Assembly (NCBI RefSeq): GCF_000973085.1 | Contig: NZ_CP011280.1 | Coordinates: forward strand, 274,642-338,641 | From: Sneathia vaginalis | Lineage (GTDB): Bacteria > Fusobacteriota > Fusobacteriia > Fusobacteriales > Leptotrichiaceae | DNA length: 64,000 nt | Reading direction: 5' to 3' | Shown: positions 1-40,832 of the stretch, piece after piece | How positions within the stretch are numbered: the stretch's first letter is position 1 | Layout of the letters: each line of letters starts with the position of its first letter | Notes under the pieces: model-generated | What the model was told of the DNA's origin: nothing | Seen by the model: only the letters and a program-made list of their open reading frames with translations | The model's database searches: none | Position numbers and translations under genes: made by a program

Positions 1-240
1 ATAAATAAGGTAAGCTCATTAGAAGGACTAAAAGACCCAGAATATAGAGTTAAATCTATTAGAGAATGGCATAAAAACTACATGAATAATGTATTAGGAT
101 TCTTACCAGTAGCATTTAAGTTTGAATTAACTCCATATAATAAGAGAGTTAAGTTTGCTACTATGTCAATAGACCCTAAGGTATCTGAAGGTAAAGTAAT
201 GGCAGTAACAGCACAACAACCATATAAATCAACTAAATAA
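1..240 (+). CDS. C-terminal end of an unrecognised protein (partial)
   Basis: Frame 1 is open from the first base to a TAA at 238-240, giving the last 79 codons of a gene that begins outside the window. The visible segment is charged and mixed alpha/beta in character, with no membrane span. It contains the stretches SIREWHKNYMNNVLGFLP and FATMSIDPKV. I do not recognise the family and no catalytic motif is visible. A clear rho-independent terminator follows directly, so this is the last gene of its transcript and is separate from the lysine-riboswitch operon downstream. The antisense frame that is also open here has no supporting start or family signal. Confidence 0.6.
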   Translation: MNKVSSLEGLKDPEYRVKSIREWHKNYMNNVLGFLPVAFKFELTPYNKRVKFATMSIDPKVSEGKVMAVTAQQPYKSTK

Positions 241-243
241 GCT

Positions 244-274
244 AAAAAAATGTGGAGTTTATCCACATTTTTTT
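244..274 (+). terminator. Rho-independent terminator after the partial gene
   Basis: A run of seven A, the stem TGTGGA with loop GTTTA and complement TCCACA, then seven T. It begins 4 bases after the stop codon at 238-240. The A and T tracts extend the stem, so it could work weakly in both directions. Confidence 0.85.
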
Positions 275-275
275 G

Positions 276-304
276 TAGACAAAACTTTTTAATTGTGTTA
301 TCAT
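276..304 (+). promoter_or_regulatory. Promoter of the lysine-riboswitch operon
   Basis: TAGACA (276-281) and TATCAT (299-304) are separated by exactly 17 bases. Transcription would start near 311, directly before the 5' strand of riboswitch helix P1. Confidence 0.55.
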
Positions 305-311
305 TAATGTA

Positions 312-513
312 ATTAGATAGAGGCGCACTTTTTATAAGTATACTGTGGAGATGGCAATCAATGAAGTAGTAAAAAGGAAACGGTGCCGAAACACTAGTAA
401 GGCATTACTAGGAGTTGGGTATATAGAGAATATCTATGTAACTGTCATAATATTATGATGTGCTATCAGTATATATAAAATATACCACTGATAGCTAATC
501 TATCAGTTTTTTT
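312..513 (+). promoter_or_regulatory. Lysine riboswitch (L-box) with transcription-attenuation platform
   Basis: The leader carries the L-box signature elements in order: GATAGAGGCGC (316-326), AGTA (337-340), GGAAACGGTGCCGAAAC (376-392), GTTGGGT (414-420) and ACTGTC (441-446). P1 can form from GATAG (316-320) with CTATC (463-467). The 3' P1 strand is part of GCTATCAG (462-469), which can instead pair with CTGATAGC (488-495) as antiterminator. That same 488-494 segment pairs with CTATCAG (500-506) to form a terminator followed by seven T. So P1 closure with lysine bound should free the terminator and stop transcription. The family is known; the OFF-switch direction is inferred from the pairing. 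Confidence 0.9.
488..513 (+). terminator. Riboswitch-controlled terminator
   Basis: CTGATAG, loop CTAAT, CTATCAG, then seven T (507-513). It is mutually exclusive with the antiterminator helix 462-469/488-495 and ends just before the AGGAG ribosome-binding site of the importer gene. Confidence 0.9.
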
Positions 514-529
514 ATAGGAGATGATTAGC

Positions 530-1996
530 TTGAAAAAAATTATTTTAAGTTTTCTTTTATTCCTTGCTACTTTATCATGTGGTACAGATAATAGAAAAGT
601 TTTAAAAGTAGGAATGGAAGTAGGGTACGCACCTTTTAACTGGTTTCAAGAATCAGGTGAAAATGGTGCAGTAAAGATATCTTCAGGATATGCTGGAGGA
701 TATGACGTAGAAATTGCAAAGATAATTGCAGATAAACTTGATATGAAATTAGAAATTGTACCAAGTGACTGGGATTCATTATTAGGGCCAGCAGTTAATT
801 CTGGTAAAGTCGATCTTGTTATAGCTGGTATGTCACCAACTGATGAAAGAAAGAAAAGTCTAGATTTTACAAAATCATATTATGATTCAGATATAGTGGT
901 TGTAGTAAAAAAAGATGGTAAATTTAAAGATGCAAAGACATTAAATGATTTCAAAGGAGCTAGAATAACAGGACAATTAAATACTATACACTATGACTTG
1001 ATTAATCAATTAAATGGTGTAAAGAAAATGCCAGCAATGGATAATTTTCCTAGCATGGTTGTAGCATTGAATTCAGATAAGATAGACGGATATATGGCTG
1101 AAAAACCAAGTGCATTATCTGCAAAGTTTTCTGATCCATCAATTACATATGCTAATGTTGAAGGATTTAAGTACAATAAAGATGAAGTTAATGTTGCTAT
1201 TGGTATAAAAAAGGGTAATAAAGAACTTGTAAATAAGGTTAATGAAGCATTAGATGGAATAAGTAAAGAAAAAAGAGAAAAATTAATGGAATTTGCTATT
1301 AAGCATCAACCTTTAGGTAAAGATGTAAAGAGAAGCTTTATTGGTTGGATAGTAGAAATATTAACTACATACAGCAGTAAGTTTTTAATGGGTACATTGG
1401 TTACAATATTCTTAGCAATATTTGGAACTTTTGTAGGTGGACTAATAGGTATGATAGTAGCATTAGTTAATACAAGTAAGAAAAATAGGGTACTAAAGGT
1501 TATAAACTACATTTATGTGTTGGTATTTAGGGGAACACCGATGATAGTACAAGCAATGATATTTTACTATGGATTAGGGCAAATATTTGGTATTAACTTA
1601 AAACCATTAGTTGCTGCTATGATAATAATCTCAATAAATACAGGTGCATATTTATCAGAAATATTCAGAGGTGGAATAATTTCTATAGATACAGGTCAGT
1701 ATGAAGCAGCAATATCATTAGGATTTACTCACAGACAAGCTATGGAATATGTAGTTTTACCACAAGCATTTAGAAATGTATTGCCAGCAATAGGAAATGA
1801 ATTTATAGTAAATATAAAGGACTCATCAGTTCTTTTTGCGATAGGTGTAACAGAACTATATACAGTATCAAAACAAATTGCAGGAACAAACTTTAGATAT
1901 TATGAAGTATTTATCATTACTTGTGTAATATACTTCATATTAACAACTGTATTTAGTCGTTTAGTAGCATATATGGAACAAAGATTAGATGGGTGA
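530..1996 (+). CDS. Amino-acid (probably lysine) ABC importer, fused substrate-binding protein and permease
   Basis: A fusion of an SBP_bac_3-type binding protein and a His/Glu-type permease. The N-terminus is a lipoprotein signal (hydrophobic stretch ending LATLSC), so the binding domain should be membrane-anchored. The binding domain starts around [13 protein letters not shown]. Several membrane spans follow from about residue 275, and the EAA loop ([14 protein letters not shown]) lies near residue 390. TTG at 530 is preferred as start: AGGAG at 516-520 touches the in-frame ATG at 521 with no spacing but lies 9 bases from the TTG, which begins the natural LKK signal peptide. The L-box upstream makes lysine the likely substrate, as in the predicted LysX/LysY transporters; that is inference. 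The stop overlaps the next gene's leader. Confidence 0.9.
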
Positions 1997-2001
1997 TAAA
2001 A

Positions 2002-2703
2002 ATGATATTAAAAATAGAGGATTTAAAGAAAAAATATAAGGATAAAGAAGTTTTAAAGGGTATAAACTTTAGTGTTGAAAAAGGTGAGGTTATAAGCATA
2101 ATAGGACCATCTGGAGGTGGAAAATCTACACTTTTACGTTGTATAAATTTACTTGAAACACCTACTAGTGGTAATATATATTTTAAAGATGAAAAGATAA
2201 GTGCAACTGAAAAGTATAGACAACAAGTAGGAATGGTATTCCAAAACTTTAATTTATTTAATAATCTAACAGTTATAGAAAATTGCATATTAGCACCTAA
2301 AAAATTATTAAATTTAAGTGATAAAGAAGCAAGAGATCAAGCAAAAAGATATTTAGAAAAGGTTGGTATGCTAGACTTTATTAACGCAAGACCTAAAAGT
2401 TTATCTGGTGGTCAAAAACAAAGAGTCGCAATAGCAAGAGCATTATGTATGAAGCCAGAGATTCTATTATTCGATGAACCAACATCAGCACTAGATCCAG
2501 AAATGGTATCAGAAGTATTAAAAATCATTGTTTCACTAGCAAAAGAAGGTATGACAATGTTAGTTGTTACTCATGAAATGAGCTTTTCAAAGAATGTATC
2601 TGATAGAATATTATTCATGCAAAATGGAGTGATCGCAGCAGATATTAAACCTAGCGAAGTGGAAAAGAATGAAAGAGTAAGAGAGTTTATGGAAAAAGAT
2701 TAA
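2002..2703 (+). CDS. Amino-acid ABC importer ATP-binding subunit
   Basis: A polar amino-acid ABC ATPase of the HisP/GlnQ/ArtP type that energises the preceding fused binding-protein/permease. It has Walker [10 protein letters not shown] (about residues 35-43), Q-loop VFQNFNLF, signature LSGGQKQR, Walker [13 protein letters not shown] and switch His in VVTHE. At 233 residues the length is normal. ATG 2002 is chosen over GTG 1993 because GGTGAT (1992-1997), complementary to the 16S tail, lies 4 bases before it. It is co-transcribed under the lysine riboswitch and ends at a terminator. Lysine specificity is inferred from the riboswitch, not from the ATPase itself. Confidence 0.93.
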
Positions 2704-2707
2704 AGAC

Positions 2708-2736
2708 AAAAGCACTTAATTTTTTAAGTGCTTTTT
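2708..2736 (+). terminator. Terminator of the lysine importer operon
   Basis: AAAGCACTTA, loop ATTTTT, TAAGTGCTTTTT. The stem has 10 bp and ends in a T run 33 bases after the stop codon. Confidence 0.88.
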
Positions 2737-2750
2737 GCTTATACTACACT

Positions 2751-2789
2751 TTTTTTCATAGCCATTACACCATATTTGGCTATGAAAAA
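2751..2789. repeat. Isolated long inverted repeat
   Basis: TTTTTCATAGCCA (2752-2764) pairs with TGGCTATGAAAAA (2777-2789) around a 12-base loop. The T tract is on the 5' side and the A tract on the 3' side on both strands, so it lacks the 3' T tail of a terminator. It sits between the two convergent operon terminators. Confidence 0.6.
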
Positions 2790-2814
2790 TCAATAATAGC
2801 GAGATTATACAAAT

Positions 2815-2840
2815 AAAAAAGTGCCAAAGTAATTTGACAC
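2815..2840 (-). terminator. Terminator of the ptsH-rpsA operon (minus strand)
   Basis: Read on the minus strand: GTGTCAAA, loop TTAC, TTTGGCAC, then six T, about 18 bases after the rpsA stop codon. Confidence 0.85.
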
Positions 2841-2857
2841 TTTTTCTTTATAGTTAA

Positions 2858-4408
2858 CTATTCGTTTGCACCATATTTTTTCATTAATTCATTCATTTCT
2901 GATTTTTGTTCGTTTTCTTTAACTCTTTTTTCAGAAAGGATGATAGATGATTTCTTTTCATTTGAATCGATTATAGTTGCTGTTATTGTATCACCAACTT
3001 TGTAATCACCAACAACTTCTCTTTGAGGTATTAAACCTTTAAATCTTTCAGTTAATTCAACTAATAGACCACCTTCAAGTTTATCTGTAACAGTTAAATC
3101 TAGAACTTGTCCAACCTTGTATTGTTCCATAGCTTCAACCCAAGGTGAGATGTACATTTCTTTTATAGAACCAGATATTTTCTTGTTTTCTTTGTCTATA
3201 TCTATAATTCTAAATTCAATTTCATCATTTTCGTTGAATACAGTTAATTCACTCTTAGTCCATGCATATTCATTTCTACGAATAAATGCTTCTAATCTAT
3301 TATCCATTTCAACAAACATTCCATAGTCTTGAGCAAATAGGACTTTACCTTTAACTATATCTCCTATACTGATAATATCATCAATGTTTTCCCATAATTC
3401 ATCTAAAATAGCTTTTGCACTAAGAGATATTCTTTGTTTTTCATCATTTAATTGTTCAATAACAAAAGTAATTTTATCTCCAACTTTAAAGTTTTTATCT
3501 AGTTTAAAGAATTTTCTGTAATTAATATCAGAGATGTGCATGAATCCTTCATCATTTGTACCATCTATGTTAATTACTAAACCAAAATCAAGTATTTCTT
3601 TTACTACTCCAGTTCTCTTTTCTCCTACCTTGTATTTTTCTCTAGTTGTAAGCCAAGGATCTGGTGTTAATTGCTTTATACTAAATTTAATTTTAGCTTT
3701 TTCTTTATTTAATTCAATAATTTTAACTTCTACTTCTTGTCCAACTGAAAGAACAGATTTAATATCTTTTGTTTGTCCCCAACTTAGTTCAGATATGTGT
3801 AATAGACCTGTAGTAGGACCTAATTCAAGTATAGCACCAAAATCAAGTATTTCTTTTACTTTAGCCTTAACAACATCACCAAGTTGTAAAGTGTTAATGA
3901 AGTCTAAAACTTCTTTTCTCGCTAGGTCAGTTCTAGATAATGTGATTCCCTTCTTTGTTTTTTCTTTAATTAAGAAATCAAAAGTTTTACCTACAATTTC
4001 ATTTCCTTTTGCACCTGAAAGTGAAAGTGGTAAGAAGGCATTAACATTCTTAACCTTTACGTTATATCCACCCTTGATTTGTTTAATAACAGTTCCTGAA
4101 ACTACATCTGAAACATTGTAATTTTCAAGTTCACGAACTCTATCAAGAGCTAATTTAGATACTATTACGAAGTCTTCCTCAGTTCTGATGACTTGTACAG
4201 AAACTTTATCACCAACATTCAAGTCGCTTATTTCAAATGATCTGATTCTCCCTTCTAGTTTACTACTAATATCTAGAAAAGAATAATCAACATCCTTTCT
4301 TGTAATAGTAGCTTCAACTACTGCTCCAGATTTATAGTCCCCTGGAAGGTAGTCGTTTAATAGTTGTTCAAAACTCATATCGCTCATAAAATAATTCTCC
4401 TTACTCAT
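2858..4408 (-). CDS. rpsA: Ribosomal protein S1-like RNA-binding protein, six S1 domains
   Basis: The 516 residues consist almost entirely of six OB-fold S1 repeats beginning near residues 20, 100, 185, 270, 355 and 440. Repeats 3 and 4 are the most canonical (VKEILDFGAILEL with LLHISELSW, and VKEILDFGLVINI with FMHISDI). The first two are the divergent ribosome-binding type. Bacterial S1 helps the 30S subunit capture mRNA. In some Clostridia and fusobacteria this protein is fused behind IspH; here it stands alone, starting directly with repeat 1. It overlaps the 3' end of ptsH by 8 bases and shares its promoter. A terminator follows the stop. The family is certain; equivalence to E. coli S1 in essential function is inferred. 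Confidence 0.93.
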   Translation of the reverse strand: MSKENYFMSDMSFEQLLNDYLPGDYKSGAVVEATITRKDVDYSFLDISSKLEGRIRSFEISDLNVGDKVSVQVIRTEEDFVIVSKLALDRVRELENYNVSDVVSGTVIKQIKGGYNVKVKNVNAFLPLSLSGAKGNEIVGKTFDFLIKEKTKKGITLSRTDLARKEVLDFINTLQLGDVVKAKVKEILDFGAILELGPTTGLLHISELSWGQTKDIKSVLSVGQEVEVKIIELNKEKAKIKFSIKQLTPDPWLTTREKYKVGEKRTGVVKEILDFGLVINIDGTNDEGFMHISDINYRKFFKLDKNFKVGDKITFVIEQLNDEKQRISLSAKAILDELWENIDDIISIGDIVKGKVLFAQDYGMFVEMDNRLEAFIRRNEYAWTKSELTVFNENDEIEFRIIDIDKENKKISGSIKEMYISPWVEAMEQYKVGQVLDLTVTDKLEGGLLVELTERFKGLIPQREVVGDYKVGDTITATIIDSNEKKSSIILSEKRVKENEQKSEMNELMKKYGANE

Positions 4409-4682
4409 TGAATTTCAAGACTTCTACTAGATTCTTCAATTTACTTAAAATATCAATTTCATCTTTTTCATTTCCAGTTATAGAATTGGCTTCTACAACA
4501 AACTCATCGCCTAAACCTAATGATAAAAGCATAAGACCCATAATATTTTTACCGTCCACCCTTTCACCGTTAGCGATTACTGATATATCTCCATTGAAAT
4601 TTTCGGTAAAATTAACAAATTTAGTTGATGGTCTTGCGTGAAGACCTTGTTCGTTCTTAATTTTTAATTTAATACTTTTCAT
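4401..4682 (-). CDS. ptsH: Phosphocarrier protein HPr of the PTS, lacking Ser46
   Basis: HPr carries phosphate from enzyme I to the EII components. The active-site motif GLHARPS is intact with His15 (and Arg17). The conserved regulatory Ser46, target of HPr kinase in Firmicutes, is Asn46 here: the motif reads GKNIMG where KSIMG is usual. The 93-residue length is only slightly above the typical 85-90. AAGGTGA precedes the ATG, with a strong promoter upstream. It is the first gene of a two-gene operon with rpsA. It would serve the fructose PTS at the end of the window. Asn46 implies no HPr(Ser-P)-based catabolite control; this is an inference from one residue. Confidence 0.95.
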   Translation of the reverse strand: MKSIKLKIKNEQGLHARPSTKFVNFTENFNGDISVIANGERVDGKNIMGLMLLSLGLGDEFVVEANSITGNEKDEIDILSKLKNLVEVLKFNE

Positions 4683-4700
4683 AACTTCACCTTAAATAAC

Positions 4701-4729
4701 ATTATATACTAAAATAGTATAAAATGCAA
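4701..4729 (-). promoter_or_regulatory. Promoter of ptsH-rpsA
   Basis: On the minus strand, TTGCAT (4724-4729) and TATAAT (4701-4706) with a 17-base spacer, just ahead of the AAGGTGA ribosome-binding site of ptsH. Confidence 0.8.
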
Positions 4730-4749
4730 TTTATAATTTATTTTTTGTG

Positions 4750-4758
4750 TGGTATAAT
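4750..4758 (+). promoter_or_regulatory. Extended -10 promoter of the 4.8-13.6 kb operon
   Basis: TGGTATAAT is a perfect extended -10 element; no good -35 hexamer is seen at 17 bases. AAGGAGG lies shortly downstream, before ATG 4787. It is divergent from the ptsH promoter. Confidence 0.65.
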
Positions 4759-4786
4759 AGGGTTACTAAAAATAAGGAGGTAAATC

Positions 4787-5293
4787 ATGTTTGGTTTAAT
4801 TTTGATTTATGTAGGGCTAGTTTTAATAAATAATGGATTAGCAGGAGTAATAGGGTTTGATAAAAAAGCAACAGCTGTATTAAACTTAATTTGTGGTTGT
4901 ATAATATTTTTCTTTAATGTAGTATCAGCCGTACTTTTAGTAACAAGTGGAGCACAAAGTACTTCATTTTTCGGACCAGCAGTAGGATTCTTATTCGCAA
5001 TAACATACTTTTTCCTATTTGCAAATACAGTATTTTCATTAGATGTAAGACCATTTGGATATTTTTGCCTATTCGTATGTATTAACGCATTAATAGCAGC
5101 ATATCTTGATAAAGCAAATTTATATGCACTTTTAATATGGATAGCTTGGGCATTCTTCTGGTTCTTAGGTTTTGTTGAATGTAGTTTGAATAAGAGTTTA
5201 GGTAAGTTTTCATCATATGTTGCAATAGCTGAAGGTATATTTACAGGATGGCTTCCAGGATTATTAATCTTATTAGGTTTATGGAGTTGGTAA
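4787..5293 (+). CDS. UreI/AmiS-family urea/amide channel
   Basis: A six-span membrane protein of 168 residues matching the AmiS/UreI family throughout: an N-terminus like MFGLILIYVGLVLINNG, a central FFGPAVGFLF...SLDVRPF, and a C-terminal LGKFSSYVAIAEGIFTGWLPG. Family members are hexameric urea or short-amide channels of the inner membrane. It is shorter than Helicobacter UreI (195 residues), lacking most of the second periplasmic loop, and contains no histidine at all. The His-based proton gate is therefore missing. No urease or amidase gene lies in the window. It is first in a long operon with an excellent AAGGAGG site. Substrate is uncertain: urea, formamide or acetamide are all possible. 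Confidence 0.85.
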   Translation: MFGLILIYVGLVLINNGLAGVIGFDKKATAVLNLICGCIIFFFNVVSAVLLVTSGAQSTSFFGPAVGFLFAITYFFLFANTVFSLDVRPFGYFCLFVCINALIAAYLDKANLYALLIWIAWAFFWFLGFVECSLNKSLGKFSSYVAIAEGIFTGWLPGLLILLGLWSW

Positions 5294-5296
5294 TAG

Positions 5297-5656
5297 ATGA
5301 ATGATTATGAATTAGAATATTTTGTTGCAACAGAAGAGTTAAAACATAGATATATAGATAGTGAAACTTTAAAAAAAGTAAGAAAAGTTAGAAGCAGAAT
5401 ACTTAGAAATGCACTATTAATATATACAGTTCTTTTGGTTATAATAGTCTTTATTTTATTTCACGTATTAATACGTATACCTAATGAAACAGTAAGCCTT
5501 ATTTTAGGTATTATAGTTTTAATTTTGATTATAGCTCTTCAAAGACCTTGTGTAGATAAAATGTATAGATTTTTAATGAAGAAAAAGTATAAAAAATACT
5601 TGAGCAAAGAGTTTGTAGAAAGGCTAAAAAATGAACATAAATATTACGAAGATTGA
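5297..5656 (+). CDS. Small membrane protein of unknown function
   Basis: The 119-residue product has a charged N-terminal 35 residues, two adjacent hydrophobic spans (about 37-56 and 63-82) and a very basic C-terminal tail rich in Lys and Tyr. This suggests a two-helix hairpin with both ends cytoplasmic. I do not recognise a family. It begins 3 bases after the UreI-like gene and its last 26 bases overlap thiI, so it is translationally coupled to both. The coupling supports its being a real gene, but function is unknown. Confidence 0.7.
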   Translation: MNDYELEYFVATEELKHRYIDSETLKKVRKVRSRILRNALLIYTVLLVIIVFILFHVLIRIPNETVSLILGIIVLILIIALQRPCVDKMYRFLMKKKYKKYLSKEFVERLKNEHKYYED

Positions 5657-6818
5657 TGCCATAGGTTTAGGATATGGTGAATTAGTTTTAAAAGGTAAAA
5701 ATAGAGGTACATTTGAGAGAAACATAAAGAAAAGACTTAAGAATAAATTAAATAATTTATCTTTTGAAACTACTTTATCAAATGATATGTCAAAAGAGTT
5801 TATACTTTTCCCTAAGGGTAATGCAAAAGAAGTATTGGAAGCAATAAAGAATGTATTTGGTATAAACAGCCTATTTTTAACTGAAAAAGTAGAAAAAGAT
5901 ATAGATAAAATAAAGGAAAAAGTCTTAGAAGTAGCAAATGAAGTATACGATAATGGAGCAAAGAATTTTAAAGTAGAAGTAAATAGAGCAGATAAGACTT
6001 TTCCAATAAACTCTATAGATTTTGCAAAAGAATTAGGTGGTCATATATTAGTAAATTCAAAATTTACTGATGTAAAAATGAAAGATCCAGACCTATTAAT
6101 CTATGTAGATATTAGAAAAGATGTATATGTATATACAGAAAAAAGAAAAGCCTATGGAGGTTTACCACTAGGAAGTGCAGGACATGGACTATCGCTTATC
6201 TCAGGAGGTATAGATAGTCCAGTTGCCTCATTTTTAATGGCAAAAAGAGGAATGAAAATGTCTTATGTAACTTTTCATAGCTTCCCATTTACATCACAAA
6301 AGGCATTAGATAAGATAGAAGAATTAGTGCGTATATTAACACAATATAATGGGGCTAGTGCATTTTTCAAGATGAACATATTAAAAATGCAAGATGCTAT
6401 AAAAAAATATACGAATGTAGACTATACTACTATTTTAACAAGAAGATGTATGATGAAGTTAGCACAAAGACTGGCAAATGAAAATGAATATAAGGCATTG
6501 GTTACAGGTGAAAGTTTGGGACAAGTAGCATCACAAACATTGTGTGGACTTACATGTACTAATGCTAGTGTAGACTTACCAGTATTTAGACCATTAATAG
6601 GACAAGATAAGATAGAAATAATGGAAAAAGCTAGTGAAATAGGGACATATGAAAAGTCAATAGAACCTTATGAAGATTCATGTAGTATGTTTGCACCAAA
6701 ACATCCTGTTACTAATCCTAAAATAGAAGATGTTTTAAGAGAAGAAGCAAAAATAGAAAATTATGATGAAATAATGAATGAAATATACATGAATAAAGAA
6801 ATGGTAATAGTTAGATAG
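5631..6818 (+). CDS. thiI: tRNA 4-thiouridine synthase ThiI (no rhodanese domain)
   Basis: ThiI adenylates U8 of tRNA and transfers sulfur to make s4U; it also supplies sulfur to thiazole in some species. Visible are an N-terminal ferredoxin-like region, a THUMP domain (about 60-165), a PP-loop ATP pyrophosphatase motif SGGIDSP near residue 190, and the C-terminal DSCSMFAPKHP segment. The protein ends there at 395 residues, without the rhodanese domain of E. coli ThiI (482 residues), as is usual in Firmicutes-type enzymes. The sulfur donor would be a cysteine desulfurase such as the one at 61.1 kb. The start overlaps the preceding small membrane gene. Confidence 0.95.
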   Translation: MNINITKIDAIGLGYGELVLKGKNRGTFERNIKKRLKNKLNNLSFETTLSNDMSKEFILFPKGNAKEVLEAIKNVFGINSLFLTEKVEKDIDKIKEKVLEVANEVYDNGAKNFKVEVNRADKTFPINSIDFAKELGGHILVNSKFTDVKMKDPDLLIYVDIRKDVYVYTEKRKAYGGLPLGSAGHGLSLISGGIDSPVASFLMAKRGMKMSYVTFHSFPFTSQKALDKIEELVRILTQYNGASAFFKMNILKMQDAIKKYTNVDYTTILTRRCMMKLAQRLANENEYKALVTGESLGQVASQTLCGLTCTNASVDLPVFRPLIGQDKIEIMEKASEIGTYEKSIEPYEDSCSMFAPKHPVTNPKIEDVLREEAKIENYDEIMNEIYMNKEMVIVR

Positions 6819-6826
6819 GTGTAGAA

Positions 6827-7990
6827 ATGAAAAAGATTATTAAGTCATTATCGAGAAATTTTGTTAATGCAAAAATAGGGGATTTAGCAACGAATTTAAC
6901 ATATGTTTCTTTCATTTCTATATTCCCCCTAGTTGCTGTTGTTATGGGACTATCAAAAGGATTTGGACTAGATAGACTCTTAGTTAATAGGTTAAAAGAA
7001 TATGTACCAAGTTCTGAAACACAGTTGAACTATATACTAGAAGTTGCAGAAAAGTTGATAAACTCATTAAATTCTAGTGTATTATCAGGTGTTGGTTTGG
7101 TTATTATATTATGGTCAGTAATTAATTTGTTGATGATATTAGAAAAATCAATAAATATTGTATGGCAAGTTAGGGAAAATAGAAATCTATCAAGAAGGAT
7201 AATAAACTACATTGCAATAATATTTATTATTCCCATAGTACTATTACTACTAATAGGTACAAATGATAAAATATTACAAATTCTATCATCATTTAGTAAA
7301 ATAGGGATTTTTACTATAGTTATAATGAACATATTAAAACTTTTAATTATGATAAGTATAGTAACCTTTATGTATTACGCAGTACCTAATACCTATGTAA
7401 GTTTAAAATCTTCTGTTATATCTGCAACAACAGTAATATTAACCTTATTAGTACTTAGTAATTTTTATGGTTTCGTACAAAATAGCATATCAAAATACAA
7501 TGCAATATATGGAAGTTTGGCATTTGTACCACTATTTCTTGTTTGGGTCAGATATTTATGGATAATAGTTCTAACAGGTGTACAATTAACATATATTTTA
7601 GATAGTAAAGATTTTAGCTTTGAGAATAAGATAAATATCTTGAGCAAAAAAAGCCTATGTATACAGGTATATGCTTTAATAGTAAGTAGATTCTTTGAGA
7701 ATAAGAATCCATATTCTGTAAAGCAAATAAGTGATAAATTGGGTATAAACATACAATTGATTTTACACACACTTAGATGCCTTGAAAATATGGGATATGT
7801 TGTTAAGCTTGAAAGAAGAACGCTCTTTTATCAAGTAAATATTAATCCAGAAAATATTACTATAAAAGACGTATTAGAAAAATTTGAAAAGAAAGATTCT
7901 AAAACTCTTACAAATATACAACTTTATCAGGAATATCCAGTTGATACTTTAATAAAAGATGTATGGAAGGAGAAAAATGCTAATAATTAG
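6827..7990 (+). CDS. YihY/BrkB-family membrane protein with C-terminal winged-helix domain
   Basis: Residues 1 to about 265 form a YihY/virulence factor BrkB domain with six hydrophobic spans and the typical start LATNLTYVSFISIFPL. Residues about 275-385 are soluble and look like a winged helix (VKQISDKLGINIQLILHTLRCLENMGYVVKLE, slightly segmented by a wing). The family was once called ribonuclease BN, but that activity belongs to another gene; its true role is unsettled. The C-terminal DNA-binding-like extension occurs in some homologues and may be a membrane-tethered regulator. It sits 8 bases after thiI and overlaps rmuC by 14 bases. Confidence 0.88.
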   Translation: MKKIIKSLSRNFVNAKIGDLATNLTYVSFISIFPLVAVVMGLSKGFGLDRLLVNRLKEYVPSSETQLNYILEVAEKLINSLNSSVLSGVGLVIILWSVINLLMILEKSINIVWQVRENRNLSRRIINYIAIIFIIPIVLLLLIGTNDKILQILSSFSKIGIFTIVIMNILKLLIMISIVTFMYYAVPNTYVSLKSSVISATTVILTLLVLSNFYGFVQNSISKYNAIYGSLAFVPLFLVWVRYLWIIVLTGVQLTYILDSKDFSFENKINILSKKSLCIQVYALIVSRFFENKNPYSVKQISDKLGINIQLILHTLRCLENMGYVVKLERRTLFYQVNINPENITIKDVLEKFEKKDSKTLTNIQLYQEYPVDTLIKDVWKEKNANN

Positions 7991-9305
7991 CTTGATGCTT
8001 TTCGTTGTAATTTTACTTTTAGCATATTTAATATATATCAATAGTAAGAAGGACTTAAAGTATGAGATAACAGAAAAAATAGTCGATAAGAACAATGAAA
8101 TAAAAGAAGGAATAACTAAAAATATTTTTGATAATAAAAAGGATATTATAGAACAACTGAATTTATTCAAAGATAATGCTAGAGAAACTATTGATAATAA
8201 TATGGATAATCTTACAAAAAAATTAGAAGATAAATTAAAAGATTCTAATAGTATAAGTCTTGATATAGTTAAAAATATGACTACTTTTAAAGAAGATATA
8301 CATAAGAATATCGATGAATTGATAAATAAGAATATTGAAAAGTTAGATACAAATTCAAAAAATATTACAAGTTTTAAAGAAGAAATACGTAATGAGATAT
8401 ATAAGAACTTAGATATACTTCTAAAAAGAGTAGAGGAGAAATTAGAACAAAGTAATAAACTAGATAAAAATACTAAGGATAGTATAAATAATTTTAAAGA
8501 GATAGTAAGTTTAAAATTAGAAGAAAGTCTAAAAGAAGGATTTAAAAAATCTAATGAAACTTTCGCATCAGTTTTAGAACGTTTATCTAAAATAGATGAA
8601 GCACAGAAAAATATAGATAAATTATCACAAAATGTTTTAGAATTACAAAAAGTTCTGACTGATAAGAAACTTAGAGGTAATTTTGGTGAAGTTCAACTAT
8701 CACAAATTCTATACAATGTATTTGGTGAAAAGGGAAAACTATATGATCTACAATACGCAATGAAAGAAAAAAAGGTTGTAGATGCTATTATCTTTTCTAA
8801 AGAACCTCTAGGGTTATTACCAATAGATTCTAAGTTTCCATTGGAAAATTTTAATAGAATACAAGAAGGGCTTGATGCTAGAAAGAGTTTTGTGGATGAT
8901 GTAAAAAAACATATAGATGATATATCTAATAAATACGTTGTAATTCAAAACTTAAATCAAGCTATTATGTTTATACCTTCTGAGGCAGTATACATATATA
9001 TTTTATCTAGTTGCCCAGAGCTTATTAACTATTCATATGAAAAGAAAGTGTGGATAGCATCGCCAACAACATTAATGGCAATAGCTACAACAATACAGTT
9101 GTCTATAATAAATATAGAAAAGAATGAAAATGCTGAAAATCTCTATGAAAGTTTGAGAATTTTAGCACCAGAATTTAAAAGATACAAAGAACGTTGGACT
9201 ACCCTTATAAAAGATTTTGAAAAAATAGAAAAAGATATGAAGGAGTTAAGTACAACAAGTAAGAAAATAGGAGATAAATTTGAAAAAATTAACACAGCAC
9301 AATAA
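7977..9305 (+). CDS. rmuC: RmuC-family DNA recombination protein
   Basis: It has an N-terminal membrane anchor (about residues 2-20), a long Lys/Glu/Asn-rich coiled coil to about residue 225, then the RmuC domain starting at LRGNFGEVQLSQIL (about residue 232), with VDAIIFSKEP and LLPIDSKFPLENF resembling the restriction-endonuclease-like core. RmuC limits inversions between short inverted repeats in E. coli. ATG 7977 is chosen over 7959 because GGAAGGAG lies 6 bases upstream. It overlaps yihY and the first chromate-transporter gene. Confidence 0.92.
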   Translation: MLIISLMLFVVILLLAYLIYINSKKDLKYEITEKIVDKNNEIKEGITKNIFDNKKDIIEQLNLFKDNARETIDNNMDNLTKKLEDKLKDSNSISLDIVKNMTTFKEDIHKNIDELINKNIEKLDTNSKNITSFKEEIRNEIYKNLDILLKRVEEKLEQSNKLDKNTKDSINNFKEIVSLKLEESLKEGFKKSNETFASVLERLSKIDEAQKNIDKLSQNVLELQKVLTDKKLRGNFGEVQLSQILYNVFGEKGKLYDLQYAMKEKKVVDAIIFSKEPLGLLPIDSKFPLENFNRIQEGLDARKSFVDDVKKHIDDISNKYVVIQNLNQAIMFIPSEAVYIYILSSCPELINYSYEKKVWIASPTTLMAIATTIQLSIINIEKNENAENLYESLRILAPEFKRYKERWTTLIKDFEKIEKDMKELSTTSKKIGDKFEKINTAQ

Positions 9306-37456: not shown

Positions 37457-37485
37457 TTTACATAAAAAGTAAATAAGAGTATAAT
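37457..37485 (+). promoter_or_regulatory. Promoter of the ABC exporter pair
   Basis: TTTACA (37457-37462) and TATAAT (37480-37485) with a 17-base spacer; AGAGG lies before the first ATG. Confidence 0.75.
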
Positions 37486-37518: not shown

Positions 37519-39075
37519 ATGAAGCTTAAAGAATTTTTGTTGTACGTTGTATTGTTTATAAAAAAAGTAATATTTATATGTACTTTAATAGCACCAATGT
37601 TTATTGTAAATAGCCTATTTTTAAAAGATATAAAATCAATATGTTTTTTTATAGTAATTCAATTTATACTATATATTATTGATGTTATCTTTGGATATCT
37701 TTCTGAACTTTTTATGGAAAAACATTTAGAAGAAAGGAAATTAAATTTAATAGATACACTTATTGATAAAATAACAAAACAATCTAATGATAAATTTAAG
37801 TATAGAGATAAATATATATCATGGATAATAAATGATATGAACATTTTAAAATATGAATATTTTAAACCAAAAATAGAAATATTCTTTTTAATTTTTGAAA
37901 TAGTTATATATTTACTAGGATTGATATATTTTGGAGTTGCATTTTTTATCGTAAATATATTAGGAACATTATTAATTACCATATATACAAGCAGCAAGTC
38001 TAAAAATTATAGTAATGTAAATAGTGATATTTCAAAACTATCTGAAAATAAGACAAAATTTATAACTAATTTATTTGAAAATATATTTACTTTTTGGTTT
38101 TCAGGAGATATGAAAATCTTTAAAGAAAAAAATGTGGAATATAATGAAGTGTTTCTAGGTAAAATGAAGAAAGTTATAAAGCCATTATATATTTTTTTAA
38201 CACAAAAAAATATACTTTTGATACTGATTCAAACTATAAATATAATACTTGCAATTTACTATATTTATAAAGGTAAAATAAGTTTAGGAGCATATAGTGT
38301 TATAGGTAGCTTTTCAGGATATTTAACTAATACCTTTAATCTAATTATTCAAAACTATGTTTCAATAAAAAAATCTAAAGAAGTACTTAAAAGATATGAT
38401 GAAGAACTTATTAGTGAAAAACAAGGAGAAGTTGTTTTATCTGATATAGATACAATAGAATTTAAGAATATATTTTTTAAGGATGTATATAATAACTTCA
38501 ATTATACCTTTGAAAAGAATAAAAAATATTTGATTATAGGAGAATCAGGCTGTGGTAAATCAACTTTAATGAATTTAATATTAAAAAATATTGAAGATTA
38601 TACAGGTGATATATATATTAATAATCATAAATTAGAGGGCATAAATAAATATTCGATATATAAAAATATTGAATATATGAATGCAGATAACTTTATTTTT
38701 TATTCTACTATAGATAATAATATTAGTATGTTTGATGATGAAATAAATAAAAATAAGGTTAATAATATATTAGAAAATTTAAATTTAGAGAATAGAAGTG
38801 AAGAACTTACTGAAAATGGTGTATCTTTAGGACAAAAACAAAGAATAAATTTAGCAAGAGTCTTATATATGGATAAACCTATTATCATATTAGATGAAGC
38901 GACATCAAATTTAGATAAAAATAATAGAGAAAGAATAGAAAATATGTTCTTGAATTTAAATAAAACAATAATATTTATAACACACTATTATGATGAGAAA
39001 TTTATAAAAAATTTTGATGAAGTACTTTTACTAAAAAGAGGTGGTAAATATGAAAGACATATTGTTTCAAAATGA
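37519..39075 (+). CDS. Divergent ABC exporter half-transporter, subunit 1
   Basis: 518 residues: about six hydrophobic spans in the first 280 residues, then a nucleotide-binding domain with Walker A GESGCGKST near 341, signature-like VSLGQKQR, Walker B IIILDEATSNLD (catalytic Glu kept) and switch His in ITHYYDE. The Q-loop reads YMNADNF where VPQD is usual, so the glutamine is missing. The sequence is richer in A/T, Asn and Ile than its neighbours. Organisation resembles heterodimeric type-IV exporters for peptides, lipids or drugs; no precursor peptide, peptidase C39 domain or modifying enzyme is seen nearby. It overlaps subunit 2 by 26 bases. Substrate unknown. Confidence 0.85.
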   Translation: MKLKEFLLYVVLFIKKVIFICTLIAPMFIVNSLFLKDIKSICFFIVIQFILYIIDVIFGYLSELFMEKHLEERKLNLIDTLIDKITKQSNDKFKYRDKYISWIINDMNILKYEYFKPKIEIFFLIFEIVIYLLGLIYFGVAFFIVNILGTLLITIYTSSKSKNYSNVNSDISKLSENKTKFITNLFENIFTFWFSGDMKIFKEKNVEYNEVFLGKMKKVIKPLYIFLTQKNILLILIQTINIILAIYYIYKGKISLGAYSVIGSFSGYLTNTFNLIIQNYVSIKKSKEVLKRYDEELISEKQGEVVLSDIDTIEFKNIFFKDVYNNFNYTFEKNKKYLIIGESGCGKSTLMNLILKNIEDYTGDIYINNHKLEGINKYSIYKNIEYMNADNFIFYSTIDNNISMFDDEINKNKVNNILENLNLENRSEELTENGVSLGQKQRINLARVLYMDKPIIILDEATSNLDKNNRERIENMFLNLNKTIIFITHYYDEKFIKNFDEVLLLKRGGKYERHIVSK

Positions 39076-40597
39076 ATATATAAAAAAACTAAGATTAAAG
39101 AATTTTTTAATCTCAATCTTATACGTCATACTATCATTGATTAATGCATTAATACCACTATCTTTAATTAAAGTATTAGATTATATAATACAAAAAAAGG
39201 TTAAATTTGCAATTTTTGCAATGATAACAGTATCAATACTGTATATATTACTTGTATGCCTTAAATCACTAATTGAATACAGTTCAGTTGTTGTAAAAGA
39301 AAGAAATAAAATAGAGATAATAAGGGTTTTAATTAATAAAATTTCAAAGCAAAAAACAAGTTCAATTGATACAAATAAATATTTGTCATGGATATTTAAT
39401 GATGTGGAAAGCATAATAAATTTGTATATTACAAATTTATTCAATCTATATGCATGTATATCAATGCTAATATTCTCTATGATATCAATATTATATATAA
39501 ATAAATATATTATGGTTTTAGTTATTGCACTATCTATAGTATCTTTAGCTATTCCTAAAATTTTTGTTAAAAGATTAAAAATTGTTCAAAAAAAATTAAA
39601 TGATTCTCAAGAAAAGCATTTATTTAAAATAAAGAATTTTTTATTAGGTATGATATATTTTATATATAATAATAAAAGAAGTAAGTTTATCAACCTAATT
39701 AGAAAAGAAAATTTAAAATTAAAAGAAGCAACAATATTAAATTTTAAAGAAAATGATATATATGAAAGTATTATGAATTTATTTAGTGTATTATCAAAAT
39801 TTTTAATCAGTGCTGTTATATGTATCCTAATATATTTAGGTAAGGTTAGCTTTGGTACATTTTTTGGAATTGTAAGTATATATAATAATTTTTTAAATTC
39901 ATTTTTAACTTTATCAGGAATTGTTGGAAGAATAAAGGTTGGTAAATCTATATTCGATAAATTTGATCTAGAAGTTTTAGAAGAAACTGAAAATAGAATA
40001 AAAATAGATAAGATAAATAGTATTAGTATGGAAAATGTATCAGTTGCTAATAAACTTAAACCATTAACAACATCATTTCAAAAAAGTAATAAATATAGTA
40101 TTGTTGGAGAATCTGGTAGTGGTAAAACTACATTAATAAGAACAATATTAGGTTTTGAAAAATATGATGGTAATATTTTAGTAAATGGTATAAATATTAA
40201 AAATATAGATATGAAAAATGTATATAATGAAATTGACTATGTTAATGATGATAAAAATATATTGTTAGGAAATATATATGAAAATATATCGCTATTTAAG
40301 CAATATAATAAACAAAAGATTGATAAGATATTAAATCTTTTAAATTTAACTCATTTAAGTACCTATGATATTTTATCTAATGATAAGTTGTCAACAGGAG
40401 AAATTGCTAGAGTAAAATTAGCAAGGTTGATATATGATGATAAGGATATATTGATTTTAGATGAAGCTTTAGCAAATATTGATGTAAAAAATAGAGATAT
40501 TATTAATAATTATTTATCTACAACAAATAAAACTATTATTGAAGTAACACATCATTTAGACGAAAAATTAAAATATAATGTGATAGCATTAAAGTAA
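39050..40597 (+). CDS. Divergent ABC exporter half-transporter, subunit 2
   Basis: 515 residues: about six membrane spans (1-290), then Walker A GESGSGKTT near 353, a degenerate signature KLSTGEIAR in place of LSGGQ, Walker B ILILDEALANID and switch His VTHHLDE. The Q-loop reads YVNDDKN, again without glutamine. One canonical-like and one degenerate signature suggest an asymmetric heterodimer with subunit 1. ATG 39050 is favoured over GTG 39041 by the AGAGGTGG site before it. It is the last intact gene before a degraded sugar-permease fragment. Substrate unknown. Confidence 0.83.
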   Translation: MKDILFQNEYIKKLRLKNFLISILYVILSLINALIPLSLIKVLDYIIQKKVKFAIFAMITVSILYILLVCLKSLIEYSSVVVKERNKIEIIRVLINKISKQKTSSIDTNKYLSWIFNDVESIINLYITNLFNLYACISMLIFSMISILYINKYIMVLVIALSIVSLAIPKIFVKRLKIVQKKLNDSQEKHLFKIKNFLLGMIYFIYNNKRSKFINLIRKENLKLKEATILNFKENDIYESIMNLFSVLSKFLISAVICILIYLGKVSFGTFFGIVSIYNNFLNSFLTLSGIVGRIKVGKSIFDKFDLEVLEETENRIKIDKINSISMENVSVANKLKPLTTSFQKSNKYSIVGESGSGKTTLIRTILGFEKYDGNILVNGINIKNIDMKNVYNEIDYVNDDKNILLGNIYENISLFKQYNKQKIDKILNLLNLTHLSTYDILSNDKLSTGEIARVKLARLIYDDKDILILDEALANIDVKNRDIINNYLSTTNKTIIEVTHHLDEKLKYNVIALK

Positions 40598-40599
40598 AA

Positions 40600-40801
40600 T
40601 ACAATTCTGCAATACTTATACCTTTCCAAGCAGTTACGATACCATTGATTTCACTATTTGGTAAAGAACATATGTTAAATATAGTAGGTTTAATATTTAT
40701 GTATTTAGGATTTGGTTCAAGCTTATCAATTTTTTATACCACTACTTAAACCAAACACAGTAACAGCTGCTATATTAAATACTATTTGGATTGTGAAATA
40801 A
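40600..40801 (+). pseudogene. Remnant of a sugar ABC transporter permease (MalG/MsmG type)
   Basis: Directly after the exporter stop, the frame from 40600 reads NSAILIPFQAVTIPLISLFGK, then GLIFMYLGFGSSLSIF, a close match to the mid-region of carbohydrate permeases. It then ends at a TAA; in another frame the sequence resumes as IPLLKPNTVTAAILNTIWIVK and stops. The intervening EAA loop and the N-terminal spans are gone. So this is a deleted, frameshifted relic. A related intact gene may exist elsewhere in the genome. Confidence 0.8.
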
Positions 40802-40832
40802 AAATGGCGAGAAAAAAACTCGCCTTTTTTTT
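40802..40832. terminator. Bidirectional terminator between the ABC block and aphA
   Basis: GGCGAG (40806-40811), loop of A, CTCGCC (40819-40824) and eight T. On the minus strand the same hairpin is followed by ATTTTT, so it also serves aphA, whose stop is at 40834. Confidence 0.85.

What the first reader, a model, noticed from the sequence alone, without database searches (positions are those of the whole stretch)
37519..40597. Exporter pair in which both ABC domains lack the Q-loop glutamine
Subunit 1 has NAD and subunit 2 NDD at the place of the usual PQD; signatures are VSLGQ and LSTGE. Walker A, catalytic Glu and switch His remain. Composition is more A/T- and Asn-rich than neighbouring genes, and the pair sits between decayed genes. 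This suggests recent arrival or rapid divergence, and possibly an unusual coupling mechanism or a narrow substrate such as a peptide.
Basis: partly seen in the sequence, partly recalled or inferred. Interest (0 to 1): 0.55.

Follow-up and report, generated by a model that had tools for sequence, protein, structure and literature searches.

The report
ABC exporter pair lacking Q-loop glutamines
Two adjacent genes encode the halves of a membrane pump whose ATP engines both lack a glutamine that most such pumps keep; the loss is old and shared with mycoplasma pumps that often sit beside enzymes making ring-bearing peptides, so it looks like a working variant and not decay.

Summary
The central observation is right. 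Both half-exporters (A 37519-39075, Ala; B 39050-40597, Asp) lack the Q-loop Gln in gap-free alignments, while Walker A, catalytic Glu and switch His remain. It is not sequence decay, and nothing shows recent arrival. A second pair in the same genome and a pair in the sister species, 40-48% identical, carry the same kind of change (Ala/Ser in A, Asp in B); a third, more distant pair keeps Gln. GC3 lies at the low end of its neighbours'.

The six proteins group with Gln-less half-exporters of mycoplasmas. In a 91-protein set, 58 of 58 Gln-less proteins keep Walker A Lys, Walker B Asp/Glu and switch His. Of 24 mycoplasma loci with a class III lanthipeptide synthetase (LanKC) that I read, 18 have Gln-less exporter genes within about 2 kb, 3 Gln-bearing ones, 3 none. 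The window's genome has no LanKC, so its pairs are orphans.

Signature position 3 is non-Gly in 58/58 Gln-less against 4/33 Gln-bearing proteins; five Streptomyces pairs show this in trans.

Best reading: an active modified-peptide exporter, or orphan immunity pump, that couples without the Q-loop glutamine. Transport and cargo are untested.

The parts
37519..39075 (+). half-exporter A (518 aa), membrane part plus ABC domain; Q-loop Gln replaced by Ala, signature VSLGQ
   Evidence: ORF, PF00005 96.8 bits, gap-free alignment to PDB exporters, motif reading
39050..40597 (+). half-exporter B (515 aa from ATG 39050; 518 aa if GTG 39041), membrane part plus ABC domain; Q-loop Gln replaced by Asp, signature LSTGE
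   Evidence: ORF, PF00005 88.6 and PF00664 31.6 bits, gap-free alignment to PDB exporters
38539..38565 (+). Walker A of A (GESGCGKST)
   Evidence: translation, motif reading
38671..38691 (+). Q-loop of A (EYMNADN), Ala codon 38683-38685 at the Gln position
   Evidence: translation, alignments
40235..40258 (+). Q-loop of B (DYVNDDKN), Asp codon 40247-40249 at the Gln position
   Evidence: translation, alignments
37457..37485 (+). promoter-like TTTACA-17-TATAAT (11 of 12) in the intergenic gap before A; consensus match only (38 matches in the region, shuffles mean 40.5)
40806..40824 (.). bidirectional terminator-like hairpin closing the locus (2 hits, one on each strand; shuffles mean 0.3)
40598..40803 (+). 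remnant of a sugar ABC-importer permease, frameshifted; not part of the exporter
   Evidence: translations; 88% identical over remnant residues 3-45 to an intact gene in the sister species

Best explanation
The two genes encode the two halves of one heterodimeric ABC exporter of the half-transporter kind. It belongs to a Gln-less family otherwise found, in my samples, in mycoplasmas, where many loci lie beside a class III lanthipeptide synthetase. It most likely exports a small ribosomal (possibly modified) peptide, or serves as an orphan immunity pump against one. ATP is bound and hydrolysed at both sites (shown only as conserved Walker A, Walker B Glu and switch His). The Q-loop glutamine's contact to ATP/Mg and its relay to the membrane coupling helices is replaced: the loop carries a small or short polar residue (Ala/Ser, Asp), and the opposite subunit's signature motif carries a side chain at position 3 (Leu or Thr in place of Gly) that reaches the Q-loop (inferred). 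Shown: motif loss, its conservation, family grouping, retained catalytic residues, LanKC linkage in mycoplasma relatives. Inferred: heterodimer, transport direction, peptide cargo, compensation.
For: Gln absent in both halves of three pairs from two species (A: Ala/Ser/Ala; B: Asp/Asp/Asp) with near-constant signatures ((V/L)SLGQ; (L/I)STGE) at 40-48% identity. The 28 Gln-less proteins of the first tree other than two Lys-bearing ones form one clade: 99/91 with all columns, 91/77 with Q-loop and signature columns removed. 58 of 58 Gln-less proteins keep Walker A Lys, Walker B Asp+Glu, signature Ser and fourth Gly, and switch His. 18 of 24 mycoplasma LanKC loci read have Gln-less exporter genes within about 2 kb, and nine LanKC loci also carry in the cluster a short ORF with a Thr-x-x-Cys-type tail. 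Signature position 3 is non-Gly in 58/58 Gln-less against 4/33 Gln-bearing, and in trans in 5 of 5 Streptomyces pairs that have one Gln-less half. In human ABCB1 carrying G1178R, the position-3 residue contacts the backbone of both Q-loop glutamines in simulation (PMC7544095, passages).
Against: No LanKC in the window's genome or sister species (0 of 2) and no candidate peptide near the pairs, so cargo is homology only. The double mutant Q475A/Q1118A of human ABCB1 lost ATPase and transport (PMC7544095, passages), so a dead or non-transport pump is conceivable. Three LanKC loci have Gln-bearing exporters, so Gln loss is not needed for that cargo. Other motif positions are less constant in the Gln-less set: D-loop Asp 50 of 58 (32 of 33 with Gln), first Walker A Gly 55 of 58 (33 of 33). 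Gln-less proteins are one main clade plus few other lineages, so the position-3 association cannot reach significance once relatedness is counted. With more mycoplasma rows the Gln-less proteins are not one clade (at least 3 changes) and the deep branching is poorly resolved. A co-evolution study of CFTR NBD2 found no Q-loop coupling in the wild-type network (PMC6980524, passages; within one domain only, and sequences lacking the motifs were removed). Structure models were too poor to use (mean pLDDT 44 and 43).
Confidence: 0.65

Rival explanations
1. Decaying or inactive exporter: the Gln was lost by relaxed selection and the pair no longer pumps.
For: Double Q-loop mutant of ABCB1 is inactive (PMC7544095, passages); fast divergence; remnant gene next door; no cargo genes found.
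Against: Both frames intact in an A/T-rich genome; same pattern in a second pair and in the sister species; catalytic residues kept in 58 of 58 Gln-less proteins.
Confidence: 0.08
2. Ordinary multidrug or lipid exporter with a tolerated Q-loop change; the LanKC linkage of mycoplasma relatives says nothing about this pair. The Gln is dispensable for hydrolysis and the change is near neutral.
For: Murine P-gp Gln-to-Ala/Glu lowers but does not abolish ATPase, and CFTR Q1291A gates normally (passages of PMC4447984 reporting earlier work); 7 of the 12 mycoplasma genomes whose Gln-less pairs I read have no LanKC match; MsbA and multidrug models also match weakly.
Against: 83 of 87 ABC domains of half-exporter type in the survey keep Gln, so the change is not neutral in general; replacements are near-constant per subunit in three pairs.
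Confidence: 0.23
3. Coupling is not compensated by the signature motif; non-Gly at position 3 is only part of general relaxation at degenerate sites.
For: In the Streptomyces pairs the Gln-less half also lacks the catalytic Glu, so the deviations gather in one degenerate site; few independent events; D-loop Asp is also less constant.
Against: In the mycoplasma and Sneathia-type proteins the catalytic Glu is kept at both sites, so the sites are not degenerate in the usual sense; Deinococcus and Anaerococcus exporters repeat the pairing with Glu kept.
Confidence: 0.45

Closest known systems
RamA/RamB-type exporters of SapB-like class III lanthipeptides (Streptomyces; read on plasmid stretches L246, L247, L251, L252, L256; the Ram names are recalled, the records say only ABC transporter or ATP-binding cassette protein)
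   Same: two half-exporters beside LanKC and a SapB/AmfS-family peptide; one half lacks the Q-loop Gln (Ala, Glu or Asp)
   Different: only one half lacks Gln, and that half also has Asp for the catalytic Glu; here both halves lack Gln and both keep the Glu
Single-gene class III lanthipeptide exporters of Bacillota (Carnobacterium, Lactobacillus gasseri, Staphylococcus simulans and epidermidis, Streptococcus salivarius, Priestia, Jeotgalibaca)
   Same: exporter gene beside LanKC
   Different: one gene; Gln and Gly at signature position 3 present
GggC, streptosactin exporter (NF050039), and Mbov_0121-type peptidase exporter (NF045998)
   Same: among the best near-full-length model matches (108-131 bits)
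   Different: far below their cut-offs of 750 and 500; no peptidase domain here
Heterodimeric exporters with one degenerate site (such as TmrAB and the ABCC family; PMC7756269, passages)
   Same: two different halves or domains; deviating signature motifs (recalled)
   Different: those lack a catalytic Glu at one site and keep Q-loop Gln (Gln seen in passages for ABCC1, otherwise recalled); here the reverse

Membership tests
ABC half-exporter (6 TM + ABC domain) | ABC domain with Walker A, Walker B Glu, switch His | tested here: met
ABC half-exporter (6 TM + ABC domain) | exporter-type transmembrane domain (PF00664) | tested here: inconclusive
   B above cut-off (31.6 against 28); A not listed at E 0.1, though A aligns nearly full length to exporter models. 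The number of membrane helices was not tested with a usable model
ABC half-exporter (6 TM + ABC domain) | Q-loop glutamine | tested here: not met
   Ala and Asp; it works like an exporter by other features, and this is the variant feature
Exporter with one degenerate nucleotide site | loss of the catalytic Glu in one half | tested here: not met
   LDEA in both halves
Class III lanthipeptide exporter | gene cluster with LanKC | tested here: not met
   0 of 2 Sneathia-type genomes have an LanKC match at E 0.001; met for 18 mycoplasma loci with relatives
Class III lanthipeptide exporter | transport of a lanthipeptide | not testable with these tools
   needs experiment
Gln-less exporter family of mycoplasmas (defined here) | falls in one clade with Gln-less mycoplasma pairs | tested here: met
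   99/91; 91/77 with motif columns removed. In the larger, quicker tree the Gln-less rows are not one clade and the deep order is poorly resolved
Peptidase-containing exporter (C39, PCAT type) | N-terminal C39 peptidase domain | tested here: not met
   Pfam scans list no peptidase domain
GggC / Mbov_0121 equivalogs | score above curated cut-off | tested here: not met
   109.8 and 117.1 against 750; 107.9 and 130.5 against 500

The most novel reading that the evidence does not exclude
A class of ABC exporters that couples without the Q-loop glutamine: in modified-peptide exporters the Gln has been lost several times, in the cases read always opposite a side chain at signature position 3 of the partner domain, which takes over sensing of ATP and the link to the coupling helices. 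The mycoplasma/Sneathia family is the only one in the sample in which two different halves are both so converted while both catalytic glutamates are kept.
Probability: 0.3. Interest if true: 0.8.

Novelty: new variant of a known kind. Interest (0 to 1): 0.6.

Why it matters
The Q-loop glutamine is described as the residue that senses the ATP gamma-phosphate and ties it to the membrane domains (PMC7756269, passages), and the double mutant in human ABCB1 is reported inactive (PMC7544095, passages). A natural family in which both are gone, while Walker A Lys, Walker B Asp/Glu and switch His are kept in 58 of 58 sequences, would make the role of that residue directly testable, and the signature-motif pairing gives a concrete hypothesis for what replaces it. 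It also points to LanKC-like loci in 25 of 320 genomes of a mycoplasma order, some of them broken; in the one annotated record that I saw, the synthetase is called a hypothetical protein.

Tried and rejected
Recent transfer from base composition: rejected, GC3 is at the low end of the host genes and the low GC lies in amino-acid make-up. Misaligned Gln: rejected, gap-free in profile alignments. 'Between decayed genes': rejected for the upstream side. Degenerate-site heterodimer: rejected, both Glu present. Peptidase-containing exporter: rejected. Named relatives by the search for related loci: only six remote hits, not informative about this family. Structure prediction of A and B with two-row alignments: mean pLDDT 43.9 and 42.9, not used, and no fold search was run. 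Sign test of the position-3 association on the tree: too few independent pairs. Search for a precursor peptide with a Thr-x-x-Cys tail in the window and six Leptotrichiaceae loci: none; the looser scan of other loci in the same call also gave several chance-like hits. Literature: no paper on mycoplasma class III lanthipeptides appears among the listed results (78 hits, 15 listed; 37 hits, 12 listed), and none on a naturally missing Q-loop Gln among the 4 hits; the library is open-access only, so this is weak. Papers were seen as passages only (PMC7756269, PMC4447984, PMC7544095, PMC6980524) or as listings.

Rows dropped before counts. Tree: halves under 490 residues from the survey loci, L176 (one half split) and L031 (ABC domain only) were left out; L040 was cut to its last 590 residues; two short rows (L220, L226), the near-duplicate L223, L185, importer domains, and rows whose ABC domain began within 200 residues of the frame start were left out. 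The 58/33 set (6 Sneathia-type, 2 of the Lys lineage, 50 mycoplasma rows; 33 with Gln) was drawn from searches seeded with Gln-less proteins, so its proportions are not frequencies in nature. The replacement residue of a few divergent rows differs between the profile and the MAFFT alignment (L230, L232: Val, not Val); that it is not Gln does not.
Full report
What is there. Two overlapping genes encode half-exporters of 518 and about 515 residues. A starts at 37519; B most likely at ATG 39050, inside the end of A. A promoter-like site lies in the 132-nt gap after clpB and a bidirectional terminator-like hairpin at 40806-40824 closes the locus (consensus matches only). Pfam recognises the ABC domain in both and the exporter membrane domain in B. 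No NCBIfam model reaches its cut-off among the 25 shown for each.

In gap-free alignments to solved exporters the Q-loop Gln column holds Ala in A and Asp in B. Walker A, the catalytic Glu and the switch His are intact. Signatures are VSLGQ and LSTGE. Of 13 half-exporters of the genome that I read, 9 keep the Gln; the four without it are this pair and its nearest paralogue pair.

It is conserved, not decayed. The genome (1.33 Mb, one contig; taken to be a Sneathia from genome size and kin, an inference, no call names it) holds a second pair at 514-517 kb with Ser and Asp, and the only other genome held for the genus has a pair with Ala and Asp. These three pairs are only 40-48% identical per subunit, yet replacement residues and signatures are nearly constant. 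A third pair at 340-344 kb, 23-29% identical, keeps Gln in both halves. ClpB is 86% identical between the species, so the pairs evolve fast around fixed motifs. The loci are not syntenic: in the sister species clpB and the phosphatase gene are separated by one unrelated gene and no exporter; its own pair lies elsewhere, at a contig end.

Composition. The pair's GC is 0.20, but third-position GC is 0.121 and 0.114 against 0.122-0.201 in seven neighbouring genes; the difference lies mainly in amino-acid make-up, shared by the other pairs. This gives no support to recent arrival.

Relatives. A profile of the six proteins was run over 395 genomes of the class of G097 and 391 of the class of G096, after four genomes. 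Of 87 ABC domains preceded by at least 200 residues in the loci returned (best matches only), 83 keep the Gln; the four exceptions are the two halves of two pairs in small TGA=Trp genomes. I then searched 298 genomes of the order of one of these with a profile of subunit A; reading stretches gave 12 adjacent pairs without Gln in either half, one of them with a split half. I call this order mycoplasmas because of the TGA=Trp frames, the small genomes, and two named records with the same genes: Mesomycoplasma hyorhinis (pair with Ser and Gly, annotated only as ABC transporter) and Mycoplasmopsis gallopavonis (its record length equals that of a contig of G1141).

Family. In a 63-protein tree the 28 Gln-less proteins other than two Lys-bearing ones form one clade (99/91); with the Q-loop and signature columns removed support is 91/77. 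The six Sneathia-type proteins are one clade, A and B being sisters (100/97 and 96/97). With 91 proteins and a quicker method the deep order is poorly resolved, three Gln-less mycoplasma rows fall among Gln-bearing ones, and the Gln state needs at least three changes. Within Fusobacteriales, 9 of 96 genomes have any match to A at E 1e-30; among the matches read, Gln-less ones are the two Sneathia-type genomes, a lone ABC domain in G065 (Ser), and a separate Lys-bearing lineage in G084 and G095; one broken gene (L039) could not be read. Transfer between mycoplasma-like bacteria and Sneathia is the simplest account of this distribution, but neither it nor its direction is shown.

Neighbours in mycoplasmas. 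Beside three of the first 12 pairs lies a class III lanthipeptide synthetase (RamC_N 113-140 bits, cut-off 27; NF038151 169-261 bits, below its own cut-off of 575). The reverse test: 25 of 320 genomes of that order have an LanKC match. Of these I read 24 neighbourhoods: 18 have Gln-less exporter genes within about 2 kb (some with one half broken, or with extra copies), 2 near-identical ones a single Gln-bearing exporter, 1 a Gln-bearing pair, 3 none in the stretch; the G942 remnant was not read. Short ORFs in the cluster with a Thr-x-x-Cys-type tail were seen in nine loci (L171, L177, L178, L221, L222 with its near twin L223, L224, L225, L227, L234), eight of them just upstream of the synthetase and one (L177) upstream of the exporters; these are candidates only. 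Seven of the 12 genomes have Gln-less pairs but no LanKC match (one of these, G412, has an LanC-like piece beside the pair by eye), as in the window's genome and its sister (0 of 2). So orphan pairs are common in this family.

Site anatomy. Among 91 proteins, all 58 Gln-less ones keep Walker A Lys, Walker B Asp and Glu, signature Ser and fourth Gly, and switch His; D-loop Asp is kept in 50 of 58 (32 of 33 with Gln) and the first Walker A Gly in 55 of 58 (33 of 33). Signature position 3 is non-Gly in 58 of 58, against 4 of 33 Gln-bearing ones. Related class III clusters on plasmids extend this; I fetched 29 stretches of the hits. Two Deinococcus exporters have a Gln-less loop (LVEP, read by eye) with LSLGQ; an Anaerococcus prevotii exporter beside a radical-SAM peptide maturase has Ser with LSKGE. 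Of ten Streptomyces stretches fetched, five have a pair of half-exporters; in all five one half is Gln-less (Ala, Glu, Ala, Asp, Glu) and its own signature keeps Gly, while the partner keeps Gln and has Ser, Pro, Gln, Arg or Ala at position 3. Since the Q-loop of one domain faces the signature of the other, this is the trans pairing expected of contact. In these Streptomyces pairs the Gln-less half also has Asp for the catalytic Glu, so general relaxation of a degenerate site explains them as well. The intact Bacillota exporters read beside LanKC keep Gln and Gly.

Mechanism. Reported mutants say that the Gln is not needed for hydrolysis as such (murine P-gp, CFTR, MRP1; passages of PMC4447984 and PMC7756269), but that losing both in human ABCB1 stops ATPase and transport (passage of PMC7544095). 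The same paper describes a position-3 signature substitution (G1178R) bridging to both Q-loop backbones in simulation. Against a general pairing, a co-evolution study of CFTR NBD2 reports no Q-loop coupling in its wild-type network (passages of PMC6980524), though within one domain and with motif-lacking sequences removed. I favour a working exporter in which the opposite signature residue and a short Q-loop residue replace the Gln contact. Shown here: sequence facts, conservation, family grouping, linkage in relatives. Inferred: activity, direction, cargo, compensation.

Limits. One genome per species; strain variation, expression and transport were not testable. The structure models were unusable. 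The sample of Gln-less proteins was gathered with Gln-less queries. After rechecking I lowered confidence by 0.01 because the larger tree does not hold the Gln-less rows together and because two further motif positions are less constant than I had first written.

Noticed in passing
window 40598-40803: Frameshifted internal piece of a sugar ABC-importer permease; intact in the sister species (G001:C6, L082) next to a LytR-type gene whose homologue in the window's genome lies near the second Gln-less pair (L051). No other match to the piece in the window's genome.
   Followed up: partly
L031 (G065:C1), 1486-2106: 206-aa ABC domain with Ser at the Gln place and ISTGQ signature whose start looks like an ECF-importer ATPase, beside broken ECF-T-like frames: possible chimera of an importer ATPase and a Gln-less exporter (judged by eye).
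   Followed up: no
L030 1387-2943 (G084), L033 1390-2949 (G095): Second Gln-less lineage in Leptotrichiaceae: FIQKND (Lys at the Gln place) with ISSGE/ISVGE, no partner gene in the flanks held.
   Followed up: partly
L171-L235, 25 of 320 genomes: LanKC-like synthetases in mycoplasmas, one (M. gallopavonis, L250) annotated as hypothetical protein, several in pieces (L220, L224, L233, L234).
   Followed up: partly
L220 (G951): Several copies, some broken, of Gln-less exporter genes around one LanKC.
   Followed up: no
L239 (Anaerococcus prevotii pAPRE01), 204-8866: Radical-SAM peptide maturase with a Gln-less exporter directly next to a LanKC with a Gln-bearing exporter.
   Followed up: no
L050 3619-6736 (G000 340-344 kb): Third exporter pair of the window's genome, Gln in both halves, between a fructose-PTS-like gene and a ROK-like gene (names by eye).
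   Followed up: no
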